NCBI RefSeq assembly: GCF_030295425.1
Contig: NZ_AP027081.1
Coordinates: 1,984,001-2,048,000 of the forward strand
Origin: Mesoterricola sediminis
Lineage (GTDB): Bacteria > Acidobacteriota > Holophagae > Holophagales > Holophagaceae
DNA: 64,000 nt
Reading direction: 5' to 3'
Below the pieces are notes generated by a model. It saw only the letters and a program-made list of their open reading frames with translations. It was not told the DNA's origin and did no database searches. This document shows, piece by piece, positions 16,315 to 60,330 of the stretch. Each line of letters begins with the position of its first letter. The stretch's first letter is position 1. The translations under genes and the position numbers were made by a program.

Positions 16315-17803
16315 CACTACTGTGTCAATAATCAAGCGCATTGGCCCCTCCCGCACGCCGGGCAACAGGATAGAGAGCGAATCAGAATTCGCTCAAGGCG
16401 CCTGCGCAGCGTCGTGATTGAGTAGGGCGAATGGCGTTCAGGCCGGAACGGGCCCATGTCCTCTAGGAAGGGGTCTGGCTCCTGGGGGTGCATGGACGAA
16501 CTCAAAGATGGATTGGATCGTAGGGGGGGAAAGGCGGCTACGTTCCGCCACGATGAAGGCATAAGTGGCGGCGCATAGGCTCAGGTGGTGGTGAAGGCCC
16601 CTCCATCCGCGACCTTCGTAATGATCTAGGCCAAGCTCGTCCTTCATTTCTTGGTAGTCCCGTTCGATTCTCCAGCGGAGCTTTGTTGTTCTGACGAGTT
16701 GGGCAATCGGTGTATTGCTGGGAAGGGTGGAGAGCCAGTATTTCGTCGGCTCAGCCTCTTTCTCGGGCCATTCGATGAGAAGCCACTCCTCTGGGCGCAA
16801 TTCTGCTTTCTCGTATCCCCTCCTCGCAGAATGAACGCGCAGCGCCACGAATCGAGATTCCATGAGACCGCGAGTGCCCTCTCCCCAGACCACCCGCTGC
16901 CAATCCTTTTTCGGCGTGCTTTCCGCCAAGGCTTTAACGGAGACGGGCTGGTGCTCATCATCGCGGCGCAGATTCTGTCCTGGACGCCCCTTTCCGCCAC
17001 GCCCTCTCGCCGGCAGAGGGGCATTTCCATTAGCCCATACCAAAGCTGTTTTCGCGATGCCTACGGCATAGACCAAATTGCGCTCGGATAACGCTTCACG
17101 AAATGCGCCGCAGTCTCCATATCCAGCATCCGCCAACACGGGGAGGTCGGGGACCTGATCCTGTCTTTGGGCATCGATCAGCGCCAACGCTATCTGCCAC
17201 TTGGGCATGAACACGACTTCCTTTGGAACCCCAGCCCCATCACGCCGGTCCCGGTCATTCGCCCAGGCTTCTGGAAGGTACAGGCGGAAACCCACCGGCA
17301 CGCTGGCCCAGCGAGAGGCCATGGACAAGCTGACCACGTTCTGGCAATTGGCCGTCTTTCCGAATGGACCGCAATACTGGTGGCCAACTCCGACTGAATG
17401 CGTTCCTTTTTTCGGGAATGCAGTGTCGTCAACGATCCACGCCTCGATAGGCCCTTGGATTTCCATGGCCTCGCGGGCATAGGACCTGACAACACGAAGA
17501 ACTGCTTCATCGCTCCAGGACGCTTGGGCCACCAAGTGATGCAGGGACTGGTGCCGAGCCTGAACGTGGGCCGGATCCAACCTGGCAGCCATTGGCTCGA
17601 TGCTCTTTCTGTCTCCCGGAAGAATCAAGCCCTGACAATACAACGTCAAAGGAGCCCGCCGATCGGCATGGCCAACAGCCTTAACTAACTGATCAGCGTA
17701 TGCATCAAACCGCGCCCGACTTTCGATGGATTCGCTCATAGATAGCCCCACCTTAGAACATAGGCAGGACGTTCTGCTCGTCAAGCTTTATGACACAGTA
17801 GTG
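16315..17803 (-). mobile_element. Complete IS701-family insertion sequence
   Basis: 1489 bp bounded by inverted ends CACTACTGTGTCA (left at 16315, right complement ending at 17803) and flanked on both sides by CTAG (16311-16314, 17804-17807), the 4-bp target duplication expected of this family. It holds one intact transposase gene on the minus strand. Base composition is visibly lower in GC than the host genes. Perfect ends, target duplication and an intact ORF suggest a recent, possibly active insertion. Its right CTAG is also the left target copy of the IS5-family element that follows. Confidence 0.92.
16438..17739 (-). CDS. IS701-family transposase
   Basis: DDE transposase of 433 residues from the start MSESIESRARFDAYADQL, which has AAGGTGGGG upstream; 15 extra codons lie upstream in frame but extend towards the terminal repeat. 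The family motif WIVDDTAFPKKGTHSVGV carries the first catalytic Asp, VLADAGYGD the second region and RWRIERDYQEMKDELGLDHYEG-type sequence the Glu region. It is uninterrupted. It is unrelated to the surrounding host genes. Confidence 0.93.
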   Translation of the reverse strand: MSESIESRARFDAYADQLVKAVGHADRRAPLTLYCQGLILPGDRKSIEPMAARLDPAHVQARHQSLHHLVAQASWSDEAVLRVVRSYAREAMEIQGPIEAWIVDDTAFPKKGTHSVGVGHQYCGPFGKTANCQNVVSLSMASRWASVPVGFRLYLPEAWANDRDRRDGAGVPKEVVFMPKWQIALALIDAQRQDQVPDLPVLADAGYGDCGAFREALSERNLVYAVGIAKTALVWANGNAPLPARGRGGKGRPGQNLRRDDEHQPVSVKALAESTPKKDWQRVVWGEGTRGLMESRFVALRVHSARRGYEKAELRPEEWLLIEWPEKEAEPTKYWLSTLPSNTPIAQLVRTTKLRWRIERDYQEMKDELGLDHYEGRGWRGLHHHLSLCAATYAFIVAERSRLSPPTIQSIFEFVHAPPGARPLPRGHGPVPA

Positions 17804-17895
17804 CTAGGCTGTGTTCGGAATCTATAGATTAGATAAATAGTTGACTTGTACTCATACGTAAAGGCTCGTACACCACGAATTTTCCTGGGGTAACG

Positions 17896-18282
17896 ATGCC
17901 GAGACGTTTCCTGACCGATGCCATGTGGGCAAAGCTTGAACCGCTCCTTCCGCCAGAGCGTGGAGGGATGGGGCGATCCCGTCACCCCAACCGTCCCATG
18001 GTGGAGGCGATCCTGTGGAGGCACAGGACTGGGGCGCCGTGGAGGGACCTGCCGGAGGAATTTGGACCTTGGAGAAGCGTGTACACGCGATTTGAGGCCT
18101 GGACCAAGCGCGGCGTGTGGCAAAGGATCCTGGAGTTCCTGCGCAAGGAAGCCGACCTGGAGTGGGTCATGCTGGATGGCACCATCATTCGCGCTCATCA
18201 ACCTTCAGCAGGCAAAAGGGGGGGCTCTGGAACCAGGCGCTCGGACGATCTCGGGGTGGATGCTCGACCAGGATCCATTTGA
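17896..18282 (+). CDS. IS5-family transposase, orfA
   Basis: The zero frame starts MPRRFLTDAMWAKLEPLLPP, the typical N-terminus of IS5/IS427 transposases, and runs through the first catalytic Asp region (VMLDGTIIRAHQ). It then reaches a homopolymer A4G7 at 18214-18224 and soon runs into an unrelated tail. Continuation in the -1 frame restores the family sequence (orfB). This arrangement is characteristic of IS427-group elements, which make the full transposase by -1 frameshifting. Confidence 0.88.
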   Translation: MPRRFLTDAMWAKLEPLLPPERGGMGRSRHPNRPMVEAILWRHRTGAPWRDLPEEFGPWRSVYTRFEAWTKRGVWQRILEFLRKEADLEWVMLDGTIIRAHQPSAGKRGGSGTRRSDDLGVDARPGSI

Positions 18283-18650
18283 TCTGCGATGCCCACGGTA
18301 ATCCTTTGGATTTCCTGGTCACTCCGGGGCAAGCCCATGAAAGCCGGTCTGCTGAAGGATTGCTGTGCGGTTGGCAGGCAGAGTACGGGTTCGGAGATCG
18401 GGCCTACGATGGGAACCCGGTAAGGAAGGCGATCGAGGCCATGGGTGCGACAGCCGTCATCCCACCTCATCCCCGGCGCAAGAATCCGGCGGCCTGGGAC
18501 TCACACCTATACAAGGCCCGCCATGCCATCGAGCATGGGTTCGCCAAGCTCAAACAGTTCAGGGCGCTGGCCACCAGGTTCGACAAAACGGCGCGAAGTT
18601 TCTCAGCCCAGGTGGCTTTGGCCTGCATCGTGATCTGGCTGAGGCTATGA
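18117..18650 (+). CDS. IS5-family transposase, orfB (by -1 frameshift)
   Basis: The open frame extends from 18117, but only the part after the A4G7 run (from about 18216) is real transposase: GLWNQALGRSRGGCSTRIHL, then GDRAYDGNPVRKAIE with the second Asp and the C-terminal segment with ARHAIEHGFAKLKQF, where the Glu lies. It is in the -1 frame relative to orfA. A fused orfAB protein would be about 250 residues. The frame is intact to its stop. Confidence 0.88.
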   Translation: MAKDPGVPAQGSRPGVGHAGWHHHSRSSTFSRQKGGLWNQALGRSRGGCSTRIHLICDAHGNPLDFLVTPGQAHESRSAEGLLCGWQAEYGFGDRAYDGNPVRKAIEAMGATAVIPPHPRRKNPAAWDSHLYKARHAIEHGFAKLKQFRALATRFDKTARSFSAQVALACIVIWLRL

Positions 18651-18688
18651 GCGGAGGGTGACAAGCGTTCCGGATCCTCATTGATCCT

Positions 18689-18988
18689 ATGAAACGCGGA
18701 GGCGCGGAGGATCTCGCAGAGGGTCGCGGAGGAAAGCGCTCCTGGAACCTGCCCCTGGATATCGAGTGGAGGGGGCTTGTGGTTGAGCGGGCCTACCGGC
18801 TGGATTTGCTGGTTGACGACCTCGTGGTCGTGGAGGCTAAGGCGGTCGAGAAACTGATGGATGCCCACTTCGCGCAACTGAACACCCAGCTGCGTTTCAG
18901 CGGAATGGAGGTCGGCCTGCTCCTCAATTTCCATCAGTGGCCTTTCAAAGACGGTGGAATCAAGCGGGTGATACATCCAAGGGCTTGA
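18689..18988 (+). pseudogene. GxxExxY-family protein fragment carried inside the IS5-family element
   Basis: From about residue 22 this 99-residue ORF matches the C-terminal two thirds of GxxExxY proteins (ERAYRLDLLVDDLVVVEAKA, QLRFSGMEVGLLLNFH, GGIKRVI). The N-terminal part that contains the naming G-x-x-E-x-x-Y motif is absent and replaced by residues encoded by a GC-rich repeat (MKRGGAEDLAEGRGG). The same roughly 45-bp repeat recurs inverted just after the ORF, at about 18984-19039. The ORF is therefore a fragment framed by inverted repeats and hitch-hiking in the transposon. Its function is unknown; the family has a PD-(D/E)XK-like look. Confidence 0.65.
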
Positions 18989-19039
18989 TCCTTTCTCCGC
19001 GAGCCTCAGCGAGATCCTCCGCGCCTCCGCGTTCCAATA
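18690..19039. repeat. Inverted GC-rich repeat pair around the GxxExxY fragment
   Basis: The left copy (about 18692-18740) reads ACGCGGAGGCGCGGAGGATC and continues with a CTCGC-GAGG-type run. The right copy (about 18984-19035) is its near-perfect reverse complement, containing GATCCTCCGCGCCTCCGCGT. The unit has an internal period of about 10-12 bases built on CGCGGAGG. The pair is conserved in the second IS copy (58931-58985 and 59175-59225). It may fold into a long hairpin or mark a separate mobile module captured by the IS. Confidence 0.7.
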
Positions 19040-19156
19040 GGATGCTGCGAATGCGCGGCGCCATCAGGCACTGCAGCACAGACTCACTATTCCAGCTCCT
19101 TCATGCTCCGGCACGGATGGGTATTAGCCATTACTATCCTAGATTACGAACACACC

Positions 19157-20311
19157 CTAGTAGAGGAACATGGGTTTCCCCTCGACATGCCGGACCTTGG
19201 GGCGGTAGTTCTCCTTGTCGTAGAGTTCGGCGACGTCCACGCGCTTGAGGCCCTGGGTGATGGTCGACATGGGGACGCTGGTGTAGGTGCCGTTGCGCAG
19301 GGCCACGAGGCGGTTGCGCTCGCCGCCCTTGATGATGTTGATGGCGACGTTGGCGAAGTTGACGGCGACCATGAGGTCCAGGCTGTCGGGGGCCCCGGAG
19401 CGCATGAGGTAGCTCACCTGCTGGTTGAGCACGTCCTGGCCGGTGAGCTTCTTCATGGCCTCGCCCAGGATGTGGCCGATGCCGCCGAGCTTCTTGTGGC
19501 CGTAGGCGTCCTCCTCCCCGTACTCCACGGGGACGCCACCGGCCATGTGGGCGCCCTCGCTCACGGTGATCATGGCGTAGTTGCTGGGGTTGTTCCGCTT
19601 GTCGGACATGATCTTCTCGGCGACCCTCACGGGGTCGAAGGGGACCTCGCTGATGAGGGCCCGGTCGACGCCGGCGAGGTACGAGGCGAGAAGGGAGGTC
19701 TCCCCGGAGTTCCGGCCGAAGAGCTCCACGATGGCGATGCGCTCGTGGGAGCCCGCGGAGGTGCGGAGCTGGTGGATGAACTCGACGCTCCGGGTGACGG
19801 CGGTGGAGAAGCCGATGCAGTAGTCCGTCCCGAAGATGTCGTTGTCCATGGTCTTGGGGATGGCGACGGTGGAGACGCCCTCCTGGTGCATCCGCTCGCC
19901 GTACGACAGGGTGTCGTCCCCGCCGATGGGGATGAGGATGTCGATGCCCAGGTGCTCGATCACCTTGAGGACGTGATCGGTGAAGTCGAAGGGCCCCTGC
20001 TGGTCGAGCTCGATCCGGCCCTTGAGGAAGTCGGGGACGTCCTTGAGGCGGACCTTGGCGGGGTTGGTGCGGCTGGTGTGGAGGAAGGTGCCGCCGGTGC
20101 GGTCCACGGTGCGCGTGTTCAGCTTGTCCAGCGTCATCACGCAGCGGAAGTGGGATTCGGGGTCGTCCAGGTTGTATTCCAGGAGGCCCGCCCAGCCCCG
20201 GCGGATGCCGAGGACCTCGAAGCCCTCCTCGTTGGCGCGCTGGACGAGCATCTTGATGCAGGGATTCAGGCCGGGGACATCGCCTCCGCCGGTCAGGACG
20301 CCGATGCGCAT
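19157..20311 (-). CDS. 6-phosphofructokinase, probably PPi-dependent
   Basis: 384 residues of the PfkA superfamily, close in length and ending (KPMFLY) to the actinobacterial long form. It phosphorylates fructose 6-phosphate at C1. Two residues decide the phosphoryl donor: GGDDT at 130-134 has Asp133 where ATP enzymes have Gly (GGDGS), and PKTMDND at 152-158 has Lys153 where E. coli has Gly. That Asp plus Lys pair is typical of PPi-dependent enzymes, so a reversible glycolytic/gluconeogenic role is predicted. The stop TAG lies within the CTAG target of the adjoining IS, so the protein is complete despite the insertion. Confidence 0.9.
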
Positions 20312-30809: not shown

Positions 30810-30870
30810 TTTCGCCTCCAGGACATAGTTTACCCGAAGGCGATAGAATCCCAGGGTCATGGAGCCGCGT

Positions 30871-31200
30871 ATGATCCGACGTTCTGTTGCCCTCGCCCTC
30901 GTGCTGGCCGGTCTGGCTTGTGGGCCCCGCATCCCCCCCAAGCCGGCCGGCGTGCCCGCCACCGCCTTCTGGGCCGGGGATGGCAAGGCGGGCGTCTTCG
31001 TGGCCATCGGCGTGCCCGATCATGAGGGGTGGCAGGTCCAGCTCTACGACGACCGCTCCGGAGCCGTGGTGGCCCAGGGCCTCTACGTCATCCACCAGGG
31101 CACGGCCCGGCCGTCCTTCAAGCAGGAGGACTTCGCGGGGTGGGATGGGCATGCTGTCCGGCTGACCGGTGGCGGCGTGCTGGAGCCCAAGACCCGCTGA
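30871..31200 (+). CDS. Small putative lipoprotein, unknown function
   Basis: 109 residues. The start MIRRSVALALVLAGLACGP is preferred over the ATG 12 bases upstream because GGAG lies 6 bases before it and the signal peptide then has a normal length; the lipidated Cys would be C17. The mature part is a single small beta-rich domain (AVFVAIGVPDHEGWQVQLYDD-like). It is divergent from map and overlaps the next gene by TGATG. No family recognised. Confidence 0.65.
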   Translation: MIRRSVALALVLAGLACGPRIPPKPAGVPATAFWAGDGKAGVFVAIGVPDHEGWQVQLYDDRSGAVVAQGLYVIHQGTARPSFKQEDFAGWDGHAVRLTGGGVLEPKTR

Positions 31201-31811
31201 TGCCGTACACCCGGGAAGAACTGGATTGGATCGAGGCCGAGTGGGCCTTTCACCTGCATGGCCGCCAGGCCTTCATGAGCCGCGAGGACTTCCTCCAGCT
31301 CCAGCAATGGGAGGGCGAGAACATCCAGGCCGACGCCATCGTGGCGGCCATGGAAGCCTACTTCCAGCGCCGGGCCCGGCGGGAGAAGCCGCGGAGCTTC
31401 GTGCAGCTGGCGCACCTGGCCAAGGACGTGGCCCGCGCGACCCAGCTCCGGGCCGCCCTGGACCGGACGGAAGCGCCCGCCGGGGACCTGGCCGGCTGGG
31501 AGCGGGTCAAGGAACCCCTCCGCGCCGACCCCCGCGCCCGGGCCGCCTTCGAGGCCTGGCAGCGCTGCCGCGCCCAGGCCCCGGCCCCGGACAGCCCCGG
31601 TTTCCTGGACCACTTCGACGCGGAGCGGACCCGCCTGAAGGAGCTGACCACGCTGGCCGAGGCGGCCCTGGGTCCCCGCGCGGCGGCCCTCAAGGCCGAG
31701 CTGGAGGCCCGCCTCGCGGAAGCCCGGCTCGAGCCCGGCAGCCTCGTGTGGACGCGGGCCTGGGACCACCACTGGGGGCGCCTCGTACGGGACGCCTGGG
31801 GGATCGAATGA
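31200..31811 (+). CDS. Conserved hypothetical protein
   Basis: 203 residues, no signal peptide or membrane segment, mostly alpha-helical with charged heptad-like stretches (about 135-185). It begins MPYTREELDWIEAEWAFHLH and ends in a Trp-rich tail (WTRAWDHHWGRLVRDAWG). Coupled to its neighbours at both ends: TGATG at the start and ATGA at the end. No recognised family. The tight packing suggests that the lipoprotein, this gene and the next act together. Confidence 0.7.
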   Translation: MPYTREELDWIEAEWAFHLHGRQAFMSREDFLQLQQWEGENIQADAIVAAMEAYFQRRARREKPRSFVQLAHLAKDVARATQLRAALDRTEAPAGDLAGWERVKEPLRADPRARAAFEAWQRCRAQAPAPDSPGFLDHFDAERTRLKELTTLAEAALGPRAAALKAELEARLAEARLEPGSLVWTRAWDHHWGRLVRDAWGIE

Positions 31812-33127
31812 GCGACGCCTGGCTCACGGAACTGGCCAGCCCCACCGCGGGCTTCTTCCCGGCCTTCGCGCGGCGCGCCTCCGGCCCGGAGGGCCCCCGG
31901 GACGCGGCCCGGGACGCCGTGCGCAACCTCCTTCCCCGGGTGGACTGGGCGGCCTACCTCCCCCACGTGCCCCACGGCCTCCTGGGGCTGTCGGCGGTGT
32001 TCCGCCTGCGGCCCCTCCTGGGCGGGCGCAGCTTCCTGCGCATCCTCGCCACCCAGATCCACGCCTTCGCCCACGAGGGCCGGAGCCCCGAAGGGCAGGG
32101 CCTCGCCGCGGCCGGCGCGGGCTCCGGCCACCGGGGCAACCTGGCCATGGCCCTGGACACCCTCCGGCCCGGCATCGCCTGGGGCGAGGCCCTCGGCATC
32201 CCGGCGCCGGACCTGGGCGACTTCCTGGCCATCGAGGCCCGCCTGGAGGCGGACATGGCCAATGTGGGGCACAAGGGGATCATGGCGCGCCACCTGGGCG
32301 AACTGCACGTGGCCCTGGGCCGGCCGAAGACCGGCGGCCCCCTCCTCCTCGCCCTGGCCGCCTGGCTTGGGGCCAGCGAGCCCCGGGACACCTTCTGGAA
32401 CCAACGCGCCGGCAGGCGCCTGGAAGGCGTTCCCCCGGTGCCCCGGACCCCCGCGGTCCTGGGCCTGGAAGACTGGACGCCGGCCGCGCGGGAGATCTGC
32501 GATTGCGGGTTGGTGGAACTCCTCGACCGTTTCTGCGGCCGGATCAAGGCCGGCACGGGGCGGGGCGACCTCCTCGCGGCCCTCGTCCTGGCCGCCGCCG
32601 AGAAGCAGCTGGACGCCCGCAGGGACCTGGAGGGCAAGACCAGCTGGAACTTCGTGCACCTGGCCCGCCTCGCCCGGCACGGGGCGGAGGCCGGCGAACT
32701 GCCGCCGGCGGCCTGGGCCCAGGCCGCGGCCCTGGTGAACCTCTTCCCCACCGACGAGCCGGAGGACCGGCCCCGGTCCAAGGCGCCCCGGCGCCCGATC
32801 GATGACCCCGCGGCGGGCCTCCTGGACGCGATCCTCGACGCGGAGCCCCTGGAGGCCATGCATTACGCCGAGCGCCTCCTGGACGCCGGCGCCGGGGCGG
32901 AGGCCCTGGCCGTCCTGGCCGAGGCGGCCGCCACCAACGATCCCGCCTTCAACCACAGCCACCCCCTCCTGGCCGTGGCCGCCGCCGCGGACCTCGCGCC
33001 CCAGGTGCCCGAACCGGTGGTCCGGGCGATGCTGGTGGCCCTCGCCAAGGCCCTTGCGAACAGCCAGGGAAGCACGGACCTGGGGGCCCAGGCGGAGCGG
33101 GCCTTGACAGCCGTCGCTATAAACTAA
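31808..33127 (+). CDS. Conserved hypothetical protein, His-rich helical
   Basis: 439 residues without signal peptide. Numerous His residues lie in helices (AYLPHVPHGLLGL, ILATQIHAFAHEG, WNFVHLARLARHG, FNHSHPLL), which could bind a metal or haem, as in questin-oxidase-like helical proteins, but the resemblance is not firm enough to name. Start overlaps the previous gene by ATGA. The last codons overlap a promoter-like element for the following gene. Confidence 0.65.
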   Translation: MSDAWLTELASPTAGFFPAFARRASGPEGPRDAARDAVRNLLPRVDWAAYLPHVPHGLLGLSAVFRLRPLLGGRSFLRILATQIHAFAHEGRSPEGQGLAAAGAGSGHRGNLAMALDTLRPGIAWGEALGIPAPDLGDFLAIEARLEADMANVGHKGIMARHLGELHVALGRPKTGGPLLLALAAWLGASEPRDTFWNQRAGRRLEGVPPVPRTPAVLGLEDWTPAAREICDCGLVELLDRFCGRIKAGTGRGDLLAALVLAAAEKQLDARRDLEGKTSWNFVHLARLARHGAEAGELPPAAWAQAAALVNLFPTDEPEDRPRSKAPRRPIDDPAAGLLDAILDAEPLEAMHYAERLLDAGAGAEALAVLAEAAATNDPAFNHSHPLLAVAAAADLAPQVPEPVVRAMLVALAKALANSQGSTDLGAQAERALTAVAIN

Positions 33128-33133
33128 TTATAG
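33104..33133 (+). promoter_or_regulatory. Promoter-like element with palindrome before the secreted JAMM-like gene
   Basis: A consensus -35 hexamer TTGACA (33104-33109) is followed at 18 bp by TTATAG (33128-33133). The -10 region lies in the inverted repeat CTATAA-N5-TTATAG (33117-33133), a plausible operator that would block the promoter when bound. It overlaps the end of the upstream gene and lies 38 bp before the ATG at 33171. Confidence 0.5.
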
Positions 33134-33170: not shown

Positions 33171-33764
33171 ATGGCAAGAATTCAATTCGTGGCCGCATGG
33201 ATGTTGTGCGGCCTCCTCCCCGCCTTCGAGGCGGCCCCGGGCCCCCTGTTCGAGGTGTGCGGGCGTCAGGAATATTTCAAGGGGAAGCATGGCTTCCAGA
33301 GCGTGGGGCGCGCCAGCGAACACGCCTACAAGGAGTTCCGGGCCCTGAGCCGGGCCGAGCAGATCCACCCCCAGAATGATGAATATTTCAGTTACATCCT
33401 CCGCTGGGAGCCCGAGGACGGCCCACCCCTCTACCTCCACACGGCCTGGCAGCGGGCCTCTGGAGGGGAGCGGGAAGGCAACCAGGTCCTCTTCCAGGTG
33501 GCGTGTCCCGTGCACACCACGGACACCCTGAGGGTCTACACCCTGATGCACTCCCACCCGACGGCCTGGGGGAGTCCCGGGCCGTCCTGGATGGATCTGG
33601 AGACGGCCACCCGGTACACCAACCCGGACGGCAGCTTCCGCCATCTCTACCTGATCAACAACCGCGGCCAGCTGGTGGCCTTCAAGGCAAAACGAAGCGG
33701 CGGGCAGACGGGCCGAATCCGGCACGCCCACCCGCCCCGTCGAAACCTGGACTGGCTGGACTGA
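33171..33764 (+). CDS. Secreted JAMM/MPN-like protein, unknown function
   Basis: 197 residues with an N-terminal signal peptide (MARIQFVAAWMLCGLLPAFEA). The central part contains VYTLMHSHPTAWGSPGPSWMDL, a His-x-His ... Ser-x-x-Asp pattern like the zinc-binding JAMM signature (usual spacing between second His and Ser is 7-10; here 9), followed by a strand pair YLINNRGQLVAFK. DUF4329-type and other bacterial JAMM proteins share this plan. A secreted metallo-isopeptidase or amidase is possible, but the conserved upstream Glu is not clearly identifiable. It has its own promoter-like element. Confidence 0.6.
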   Translation: MARIQFVAAWMLCGLLPAFEAAPGPLFEVCGRQEYFKGKHGFQSVGRASEHAYKEFRALSRAEQIHPQNDEYFSYILRWEPEDGPPLYLHTAWQRASGGEREGNQVLFQVACPVHTTDTLRVYTLMHSHPTAWGSPGPSWMDLETATRYTNPDGSFRHLYLINNRGQLVAFKAKRSGGQTGRIRHAHPPRRNLDWLD

Positions 33765-58793: not shown

Positions 58794-58814
58794 CGAATCA
58801 CCGGAACCGCCTAG
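58791..58814 (-). repeat. Part of a dispersed repeat unit split by the IS5-family element
   Basis: GATCGAATCACCGGAACCGC followed by CTAG matches the end of the dispersed unit (complement of GGCGGTTCCCGTGATTCGATC at 60755-60775). The rest of the unit resumes at 60108 on the far side of the IS. Removing 58815-60111 restores one continuous unit, which fixes the target duplication as CTAG. Confidence 0.8.
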
Positions 58815-58999
58815 GGTGTGTTCGTAATCTAGGATAGTAATGGCTAATACCCATCCGTGCCGGAGCATTGAGGAGCTGGAATAGTGAGTCTGTGCTGCAG
58901 TGCCTGATGGCGCCACGCATTCGCAGGATCCTATTGGAACGCGGAGGCGCGGAGGATCTCGCTGAGGCTCGCGGAGAAAGGATCAAGCCCTTGTATGTA

Positions 59000-59224
59000 T
59001 CACCCGCTTGATTCCACCGTCTTTGAAAGGCCACTGACGGAAATTGAGGAGCAGGCCGACCTCCATTCCGCCTTAGCCTCCACGACCACGAGGTCGTCTA
59101 CCAGCAAATCCAGCCGGTAGGCCCGCTCAACCACAAGCCCCCTCCACTCGATATCCAGGGGCAGGTTCCAGGAGCGCTTTCCTCCGCGACCCTCTGCGAG
59201 ATCCTCCGCGCCTCCGCGTTTCAT
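59000..59224 (-). pseudogene. GxxExxY fragment, further truncated
   Basis: Same ORF as at 18689-18988 through VVVEAKA, then a 58-bp deletion removes the KAVEKLMDAHFAQLNTQLRF region and shifts the frame, giving an unrelated tail of 74 residues in total. The deletion joins at short GCGG-type matches. It lies between the same inverted GC-rich repeats. Confidence 0.75.
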
Positions 59225-59262
59225 AGGATCAATGAGGATCCGGAACGCTTGTCACCCTCCGC

Positions 59263-60019
59263 TCATAGCCTCAGCCAGATCACGATGCAGGCCAAAGCCA
59301 CCTGGGCTGAGAAACTTCGCGCCGTTTTGTCGAACCTGGTGGCCAGCGCCCTGAACTGTTTGAGCTTGGCGAACCCATGCTCGATGGCATGGCGGGCCTT
59401 GTATAGGTGTGAGTCCCAGGCCGCCGGATTCTTGCGCCGGGGATGAGGTGGGATGACGGCTGTCGCACCCATGGCCTCGATCGCCTTCCTTACCGGGTTC
59501 CCATCGTAGGCCCGATCTCCGAACACGTACTCTGCCTGCCAACCGCACAGCAATCCTTCAGCAGACCGGCTTTCATGGGCTTGCCCCGGAGTGACCAGGA
59601 AATCCAAAGGATTACCGTGGGCATCGCAGATCAAATGGATCTTGGTCGAGCATCCACCCCGAGATCGTCCGAGCGCCTGGTTCCAGAGCCCCCCCCCTTT
59701 TGCCTGCTGAATGTTGATGAGCGCGAATGATGGTGCCATCCAGCATGACCCACTCCAGGTCGGCTTCCTTGCGCAGGAACTCCAGGATCCTTTGCCACAC
59801 GCCGCGCTTGGTCCAGGCCTCAAATCGCGTGTACACGCTTGTCCAAGGTCCAAATTCCTCCGGCAGGTCCCTCCACGGCGCCCCAGTCCTGTGCCTCCAC
59901 AGGATCGCCTCCACCATGGGACGGTTGGGGTGACGGGATCGCCCCATCCCTCCACGCTCTGGCGGAATGAGCGGTTCAAGCTTTGCCCACATGGCATCGG
60001 TCAGGAAACTTCTCGGCAT
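59263..60019 (-). pseudogene. IS5-family transposase of copy 2, frameshift run altered
   Basis: orfA (60019 to 59612) and orfB (59997 to 59263 as open frame; real part from about 59697) match copy 1 almost residue for residue. The frameshift run has nine G instead of seven (A4G9 on the coding strand, 59692-59704), so a -1 slip no longer joins orfA to orfB; a +1 or -2 slip or transcriptional slippage would be needed. All catalytic regions are otherwise intact. An extra-G sequencing error cannot be excluded. Confidence 0.7.
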
Positions 60020-60110
60020 CGTTACCCCAGGAAAATTCGTGGTGTACGAGCCTTTACGTATGAGTACAAGTTAACTATTTATCTAATCTATAGATTCCGA
60101 ACACAGCCTA

Positions 60111-60330
60111 GTTCCGATCCTTCGTGCTGGCAAGGGTGAGTAAAAATCCCGTACGCTGAGTGCGCCGAGAAGCCGAGTCACGCTGAGCCAGCTTCGCGAT
60201 CCACCGCGCCGACCAGGCCCTGGCCCGCTGGCGCGGGCCGCGATGCTGCGCATCGCCCGGCTGGGGGCTCCGGGCCTTCCGCATGCACGCCTGTGGGTGC
60301 CCTGCGCCCCCAGCCTTGGACGGGCCTGGG
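60111..60330 (-). repeat. Left arm of a long inverted repeat
   Basis: About 220 bp that pairs with 60521-60751 at roughly 95% identity, with one 12-base gap (near 60215) and scattered changes. The outer half is the dispersed repeat family (TTCCGATCCTTCGTGCTGGC); the inner half, ending CCTTGGACGGGCCTGGG, is specific to this locus. No convincing ORF. Confidence 0.85.

What the first reader, a model, noticed from the sequence alone, without database searches (positions are those of the whole stretch)
33171..33764. Secreted JAMM-like protein behind a palindromic promoter
A signal peptide precedes HSHP...PSWMD, a zinc-ligand pattern of JAMM/MPN proteases, in an exported 197-residue protein with no close family. 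The gene has a consensus TTGACA and a -10 inside CTATAA-N5-TTATAG, so tight repression is likely. A secreted isopeptidase-like enzyme or toxin-like protein would be new.
Basis: partly seen in the sequence, partly recalled or inferred. Interest (0 to 1): 0.6.

Follow-up and report, generated by a model that had tools for sequence, protein, structure and literature searches.

The report
Orphan, probably exported JAMM-type hydrolase
A soil-type bacterium and three relatives in its genus carry a small, probably exported protein with the complete zinc-binding signature and predicted fold of JAMM enzymes (the family that trims ubiquitin-like proteins), a modestly interesting orphan branch of a known enzyme superfamily whose target is unknown.

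Summary
The 197-aa ORF at 33171-33764 is a real gene. Orthologs (43-47% identity) occur at the same place in 3 of the 5 other genomes of its genus and nowhere else searched: 77 family genomes, about 300 of the phylum, viral contigs, plasmids, phages. Pfam Prok-JAB is the only family that appears, below its cut-off. A profile search of the PDB points to BRCC36. AlphaFold2 models of two orthologs are weak (pLDDT 62-66) but mostly retrieve JAMM/MPN structures.

I conclude it is an orphan JAMM-fold, probably zinc-dependent hydrolase. Export is likely, not certain: three N-termini are hydrophobic, one is not. A stand-alone toxin reading is possible; no immunity gene lies beside it. The TTGAC(N)-N16-AATNNT promoter-like element is conserved in the four and absent where the gene is missing, but the CTATAA-N5-TTATAG palindrome is not conserved, so "tight repression" is unsupported. 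Closest known relatives are Prok-JAB/M67 and DUF4329 (Tox-JAB-2), some of which are already described as secreted.

The parts
33171..33764 (+). Gene for the orphan JAMM-type protein, 197 aa (ATG start, TGA stop)
   Evidence: Orthologs in 3 of 5 other genus genomes at the syntenic position; dN/dS about 0.33 for the closest pair
33171..33236 (+). N-terminal hydrophobic segment, probable signal peptide or anchor (residues 1-22)
   Evidence: Hydrophobic stretch FVAAWMLCGLL; similar stretches in G004 and G005, not in G002; lowest pLDDT, 1-22
33300..33686 (+). JAMM-like domain, residues about 44-172
   Evidence: Aligned range in VIA-align hits to MPN/JAMM chains starts at residue 43-45
33381..33383 (+). 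E71, predicted general base Glu of JAMM (DEYFSY)
   Evidence: Invariant in four orthologs; aligned to E of an Rhs C-terminal DUF4329-like domain; at the start of the strand after helix 45-61
33549..33557 (+). H127-S128-H129, predicted zinc ligands
   Evidence: Both His invariant; at the end of strand 120-128
33585..33596 (+). S139-x-x-D142, predicted catalytic Ser and third zinc ligand
   Evidence: Invariant; helix 143-147 follows; aligned to PSHVD of BRCC36
33104..33131 (+). Promoter-like element TTGACA-N16-AATTAT
   Evidence: 10 of 12 consensus matches against 0.1 expected in shuffles; TTGAC(N)-N16-AATNNT in all four gene-bearing genomes, degenerate in G001, which lacks the gene
33117..33133 (.). 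Palindrome CTATAA-ACTAA-TTATAG
   Evidence: Unique in genome; not conserved as a sequence in orthologous loci
31805..33127 (+). Upstream gene, 440 aa, no Pfam match; its stop codon lies inside the palindrome
   Evidence: Present in all 6 genus genomes and most of the family sampled, with or without the JAMM gene

Best explanation
A genus-restricted, stand-alone JAMM/MPN-fold zinc hydrolase, most likely exported through Sec to the periplasm or outside. One zinc is held by H127, H129 and D142, E71 activates the water and S139 stabilises the transition state, to cut a peptide or isopeptide bond in an unknown extracytoplasmic target. SHOWN: a real gene, complete and invariant JAMM residue set, correct order and spacing, JAMM-like topology in two (low-confidence) models. 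INFERRED: zinc binding, peptidase (rather than nuclease) activity, export, transcription from its own sigma-70-like promoter.
For: E71, H127, H129, S139 and D142 invariant in four orthologs; the other three are only 43-47% identical to the window protein. Motif rare by chance. Prok-JAB is the only Pfam hit, in 3 of 4 members. PDB profile hit to BRCC36 on HSHP..PSxVD. hhalign to a JAMM alignment: real score 28.7, above all 150 column shuffles. Nearly all top Foldseek hits and almost all VIA rows are JAMM/MPN for the window model; the VIA rows agree for an ortholog model. E71 to H127 spacing (56) is close to that of AMSH E280-H335 (residue numbers from own knowledge). Hydrophobic N-termini in 3 of 4.
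Against: No statistically solid sequence match to any JAMM family (Pfam E 0.0096, below cut-off). Model confidence is low (pLDDT 62-66, worst around the S/D loop and C-terminus); Foldseek E above 0.01, TM about 0.3, VIA Z at most 6.2, where unrelated folds can score. For the ortholog model only about half of the Foldseek rows are JAMM/MPN. The two models share the same three sequences, so they are not independent. The G002 ortholog has no recognisable signal peptide. No ubiquitin-like partner or E1/E2 gene was recognised next door.
Confidence: 0.55

Rival explanations
1. Stand-alone effector of the Tox-JAB-2/DUF4329 kind: a secreted JAMM domain acting on competitors, perhaps as a nuclease as proposed for toxin JABs.
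For: Same residue set (E, H[ST]H, S, D in PMC3482391). Co-linear alignment over 112 columns, E to D, with the C-terminal domain of an Rhs protein in the same genome. Patchy presence, 4 of 6 genus genomes. Faster evolution than most flanking genes.
Against: No DUF4329 match in Pfam scans; the alignment score to the Rhs domain is beaten by 1 of 150 shuffles. No delivery domain and no adjacent immunity gene: downstream is a convergent GNAT gene in the window. Kept at a fixed chromosomal position rather than in mobile cassettes.
Confidence: 0.13
2. Cytoplasmic or membrane-anchored JAMM enzyme; the N-terminal hydrophobic stretch is not a cleaved signal.
For: The G002 ortholog lacks any hydrophobic N-terminus in any frame after the upstream gene. 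G004 and G005 N-termini have no positive charge; no clean AxA site in the window protein. Previously known prokaryotic JABs were intracellular (PMC3482391).
Against: Hydrophobic stretches of about 11 residues in three of four orthologs at the same place; G002 comes from a fragmented metagenome assembly, so a start-region error is possible.
Confidence: 0.18
3. Inactive MPN- or JAMM-like protein with a binding or structural role (MPN-minus type).
For: The best VIA matches are proteins known as non-catalytic MPN subunits (EMC8/9, CSN6).
Against: All five catalytic positions are present and invariant, which MPN-minus proteins lack (own knowledge).
Confidence: 0.06
4. Not JAMM; chance motif in an unrelated fold.
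For: All similarity scores are individually weak.
Against: Agreement of motif, conservation, Pfam, PDB profile, hhalign shuffles and fold models.
Confidence: 0.08

Closest known systems
Prok-JAB (Pfam PF14464; MEROPS M67-type prokaryotic JAMM)
   Same: Order and spacing of E, HxH, S, D; helix then strand carrying E; HxH at the end of a strand
   Different: Below the curated cut-off (16.2 of 25 bits); usually intracellular and next to E1/UBL or phage-tail genes (PMC1779556); here stand-alone with a probable signal peptide and an extra N-terminal segment of about 20 residues before the domain
DUF4329 / Tox-JAB-2 (Pfam PF14220)
   Same: Ligand set E(Y)..H[ST]HP..S..D; small single domain; secreted stand-alone versions are reported in viruses and a phage (PMC3482391)
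   Different: No Pfam match; not at the end of an Rhs or other polymorphic toxin; no adjacent immunity gene
BRCC36 (PDB 5cw3) and other MPN+ deubiquitinases
   Same: HSHP-x-PSxVD motif alignment; fold-level match
   Different: E 0.074 only; eukaryotic, works in complexes on ubiquitin
RadC (UPF0758)
   Same: HxHPxG-x-PSxxD motif region aligns (E 0.007)
   Different: RadC HNHP motif is HSHP/HTHP here; alignment limited to 48 columns around the motif

Membership tests
JAMM/MPN+ superfamily | Complete E...HxH...S-x2-D signature | tested here: met
   Invariant in four orthologs; rare by chance
JAMM/MPN+ superfamily | MPN (deaminase-like) fold | tested here: inconclusive
   Window-model hits almost all JAMM/MPN, but pLDDT 62-66, Foldseek E above 0.01, Z at most 6.2
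JAMM/MPN+ superfamily | Bound catalytic zinc | not testable with these tools
   Needs purified protein
Prok-JAB PF14464 | Score above the curated cut-off | tested here: not met
   16.2 bits against 25
DUF4329 / Tox-JAB-2 PF14220 | Recognised by the family profile | tested here: not met
   No match in Pfam scans of four orthologs at E up to 10
DUF4329 / Tox-JAB-2 PF14220 | E, H[ST]H, S, D residue set | tested here: met
   residue set from PMC3482391
DUF4329 / Tox-JAB-2 PF14220 | Toxin context: carrier protein and/or immunity gene | tested here: not met
   Stand-alone ORF; downstream convergent GNAT gene
Secreted protein (Sec substrate) | n-, h-, c-region signal peptide with cleavage site | tested here: inconclusive
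   h-region in 3 of 4 orthologs, weak n- and c-regions; absent in G002; no SignalP available

The most novel reading that the evidence does not exclude
An exported JAMM isopeptidase/peptidase acting in the periplasm or outside the cell on a non-ubiquitin substrate: a new extracytoplasmic branch of the JAMM superfamily with its own promoter, found in one acidobacterial genus.
Probability: 0.3. Interest if true: 0.55.

Novelty: new variant of a known kind. Interest (0 to 1): 0.35.

Why it matters
JAMM enzymes in bacteria are known mainly as intracellular partners of ubiquitin-like systems, phage-tail assembly proteins, RadC or toxin tips. A chromosomal, stand-alone, exported JAMM with a full catalytic set and no ubiquitin-like partner would ask what these enzymes cut outside the cytoplasm. 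It is a small, testable protein, but the claim is limited to one genus and no function is shown.

Tried and rejected
Rhizobium phage hit at E 1.0: the protein has no HxH, so chance. PHROG 33215 at E 0.6: not pursued. Viral contigs, plasmids: no relatives. Looked for an E1/UBL or immunity partner next door: none by Pfam. Looked for conservation of the palindrome: not found as a sequence; the dyads in G004/G005 are ATTAAT runs. Looked for a signal peptide in other frames of G002: none. RadC and DUF4329 membership considered and not adopted.

Full report
OBSERVATION. The ORF at 33171-33764 encodes 197 aa with the stated HSHP...PSWMD segment. A full JAMM pattern (E, then H[ST]HP, then SxxD at JAMM spacing) occurs once in 384 frames of the window and in 3.5e-5 of shuffles of the protein. 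TTGACA (33104) and the perfect palindrome CTATAAACTAATTATAG (33117-33133) are there; the palindrome is unique in the 4.52-Mb genome.

REAL GENE. Orthologs exist in three of five other genomes of the genus (G002, G004, G005; 43-47% identity), always directly behind the same 440-aa gene. No further match in 77 genomes of the family, about 300 genomes of the phylum, viral contigs or plasmids; of two weak phage hits the better one lacks HxH and is chance. G001 has the upstream gene followed at once by a lactate/malate dehydrogenase-like gene, and G003 has unrelated sequence, so the gene is accessory within the genus. The closest pair has dN 0.17 and dS 0.53: a fast-evolving protein under purifying selection. 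Two organism names from the public records (Holophagaceae MAGs UBA706, UBA692) place the genus in the Acidobacteriota; the genus name was not established here.

JAMM IDENTITY. In the alignment of four, over fifty positions are invariant, among them E71 (DEYF/DEFF), H127, H129, S139 and D142. Sequence libraries give only Prok-JAB, E 0.0096, under its cut-off, in 3 of 4 members. A profile search of the PDB gives BRCC36 first (5cw3, E 0.074), aligned exactly on HSHP..PSxVD. hhalign against JAMM proteins from related genomes scores 28.7 against at most 25.2 in 150 column shuffles; RadC 23.9 against at most 20.6; a DUF4329-like Rhs C-terminal domain from the same genome 19.6 with one shuffle higher, but that alignment runs co-linearly from the first helix through E to the HTHP and S/D region.

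FOLD. AlphaFold2 with three sequences gives mean pLDDT 62.4 (window) and 66.1 (ortholog), weakest in the S/D loop and the C-terminus. Foldseek E-values do not pass 0.01, but nearly all of the 50 best PDB hits of the window model are JAMM/MPN proteins, and VIA-align rows are almost only MPN chains, with a few cytidine deaminases of the related fold, with Z up to 6.2 and 5.4. The ortholog model's own Foldseek list is more mixed, about half JAMM/MPN or MPN-containing Npl4; its best viral match is an unnamed 155-aa protein at E 1.2e-3, followed by a phage JAB-domain protein. The fold is therefore likely but not proven.

EXPORT. The window protein and two orthologs have an 11-residue hydrophobic N-terminal stretch; G002 has none in any frame. 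Positive n-regions and AxA sites are weak. I rate export at about 0.65.

REGULATION. At a fixed spacing, all four gene-bearing loci keep TTGAC(N)-N16-AATNNT (AATTAT, AATATT, AATACT, AATTAT), while G001, which lacks the gene, has CTGGAC and TTAAAG. This supports a promoter of its own, although TTGAC is also part of the upstream gene's coding sequence, which may explain some of the conservation. The palindrome is not conserved as a sequence, and a 6-bp inverted repeat with gap up to 11 arises in 5% of shuffles of this stretch. Repression is thus a guess.

MECHANISM. Most likely a zinc hydrolase of JAMM type cutting a peptide or isopeptide bond outside the cytoplasm. A toxin role is possible: Tox-JAB-2/DUF4329 shows the same residues and secreted stand-alone forms (PMC3482391), and that paper also argues toxin JABs may be nucleases. 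But no immunity gene or carrier is present here. Prokaryotic JABs tied to ubiquitin-like systems sit beside E1/UBL genes (PMC1779556); the two neighbouring upstream genes and the lipoprotein-like gene have no Pfam match.

VERDICT. Interest 0.35.

Noticed in passing
window 17804-19160 and 58811-60111: Two nearly identical inverted copies (98-100% over about 1.3 kb) of an IS-like element with split transposase-like ORFs, 40 kb apart and flanking the JAMM locus; its AT-rich end AATCTATAGATTAGATAAATAGTT occurs 48 times in the genome with at most 2 mismatches. Recombination between the copies could invert the 40-kb segment.
   Followed up: partly
G000:C1 about 1943793-1949342 (-), locus L036 7794-13343: An Rhs-repeat protein (1850-aa frame) whose C-terminal domain is DUF4329-like (REYG...HTHP...SGND), below the Pfam cut-off (21.3 of 28.6 bits).
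   Followed up: partly
window 30859-33127: Three co-directional genes (lipoprotein-like, about 200 aa, 440 aa) without any Pfam match; the 440-aa one is conserved in much of the family, next to map and ispE in the genus.
   Followed up: partly
window 16438-17784 (-): Transposase-like 448-aa ORF (DDE type by eye) next to the IS copy at 17804.
   Followed up: no
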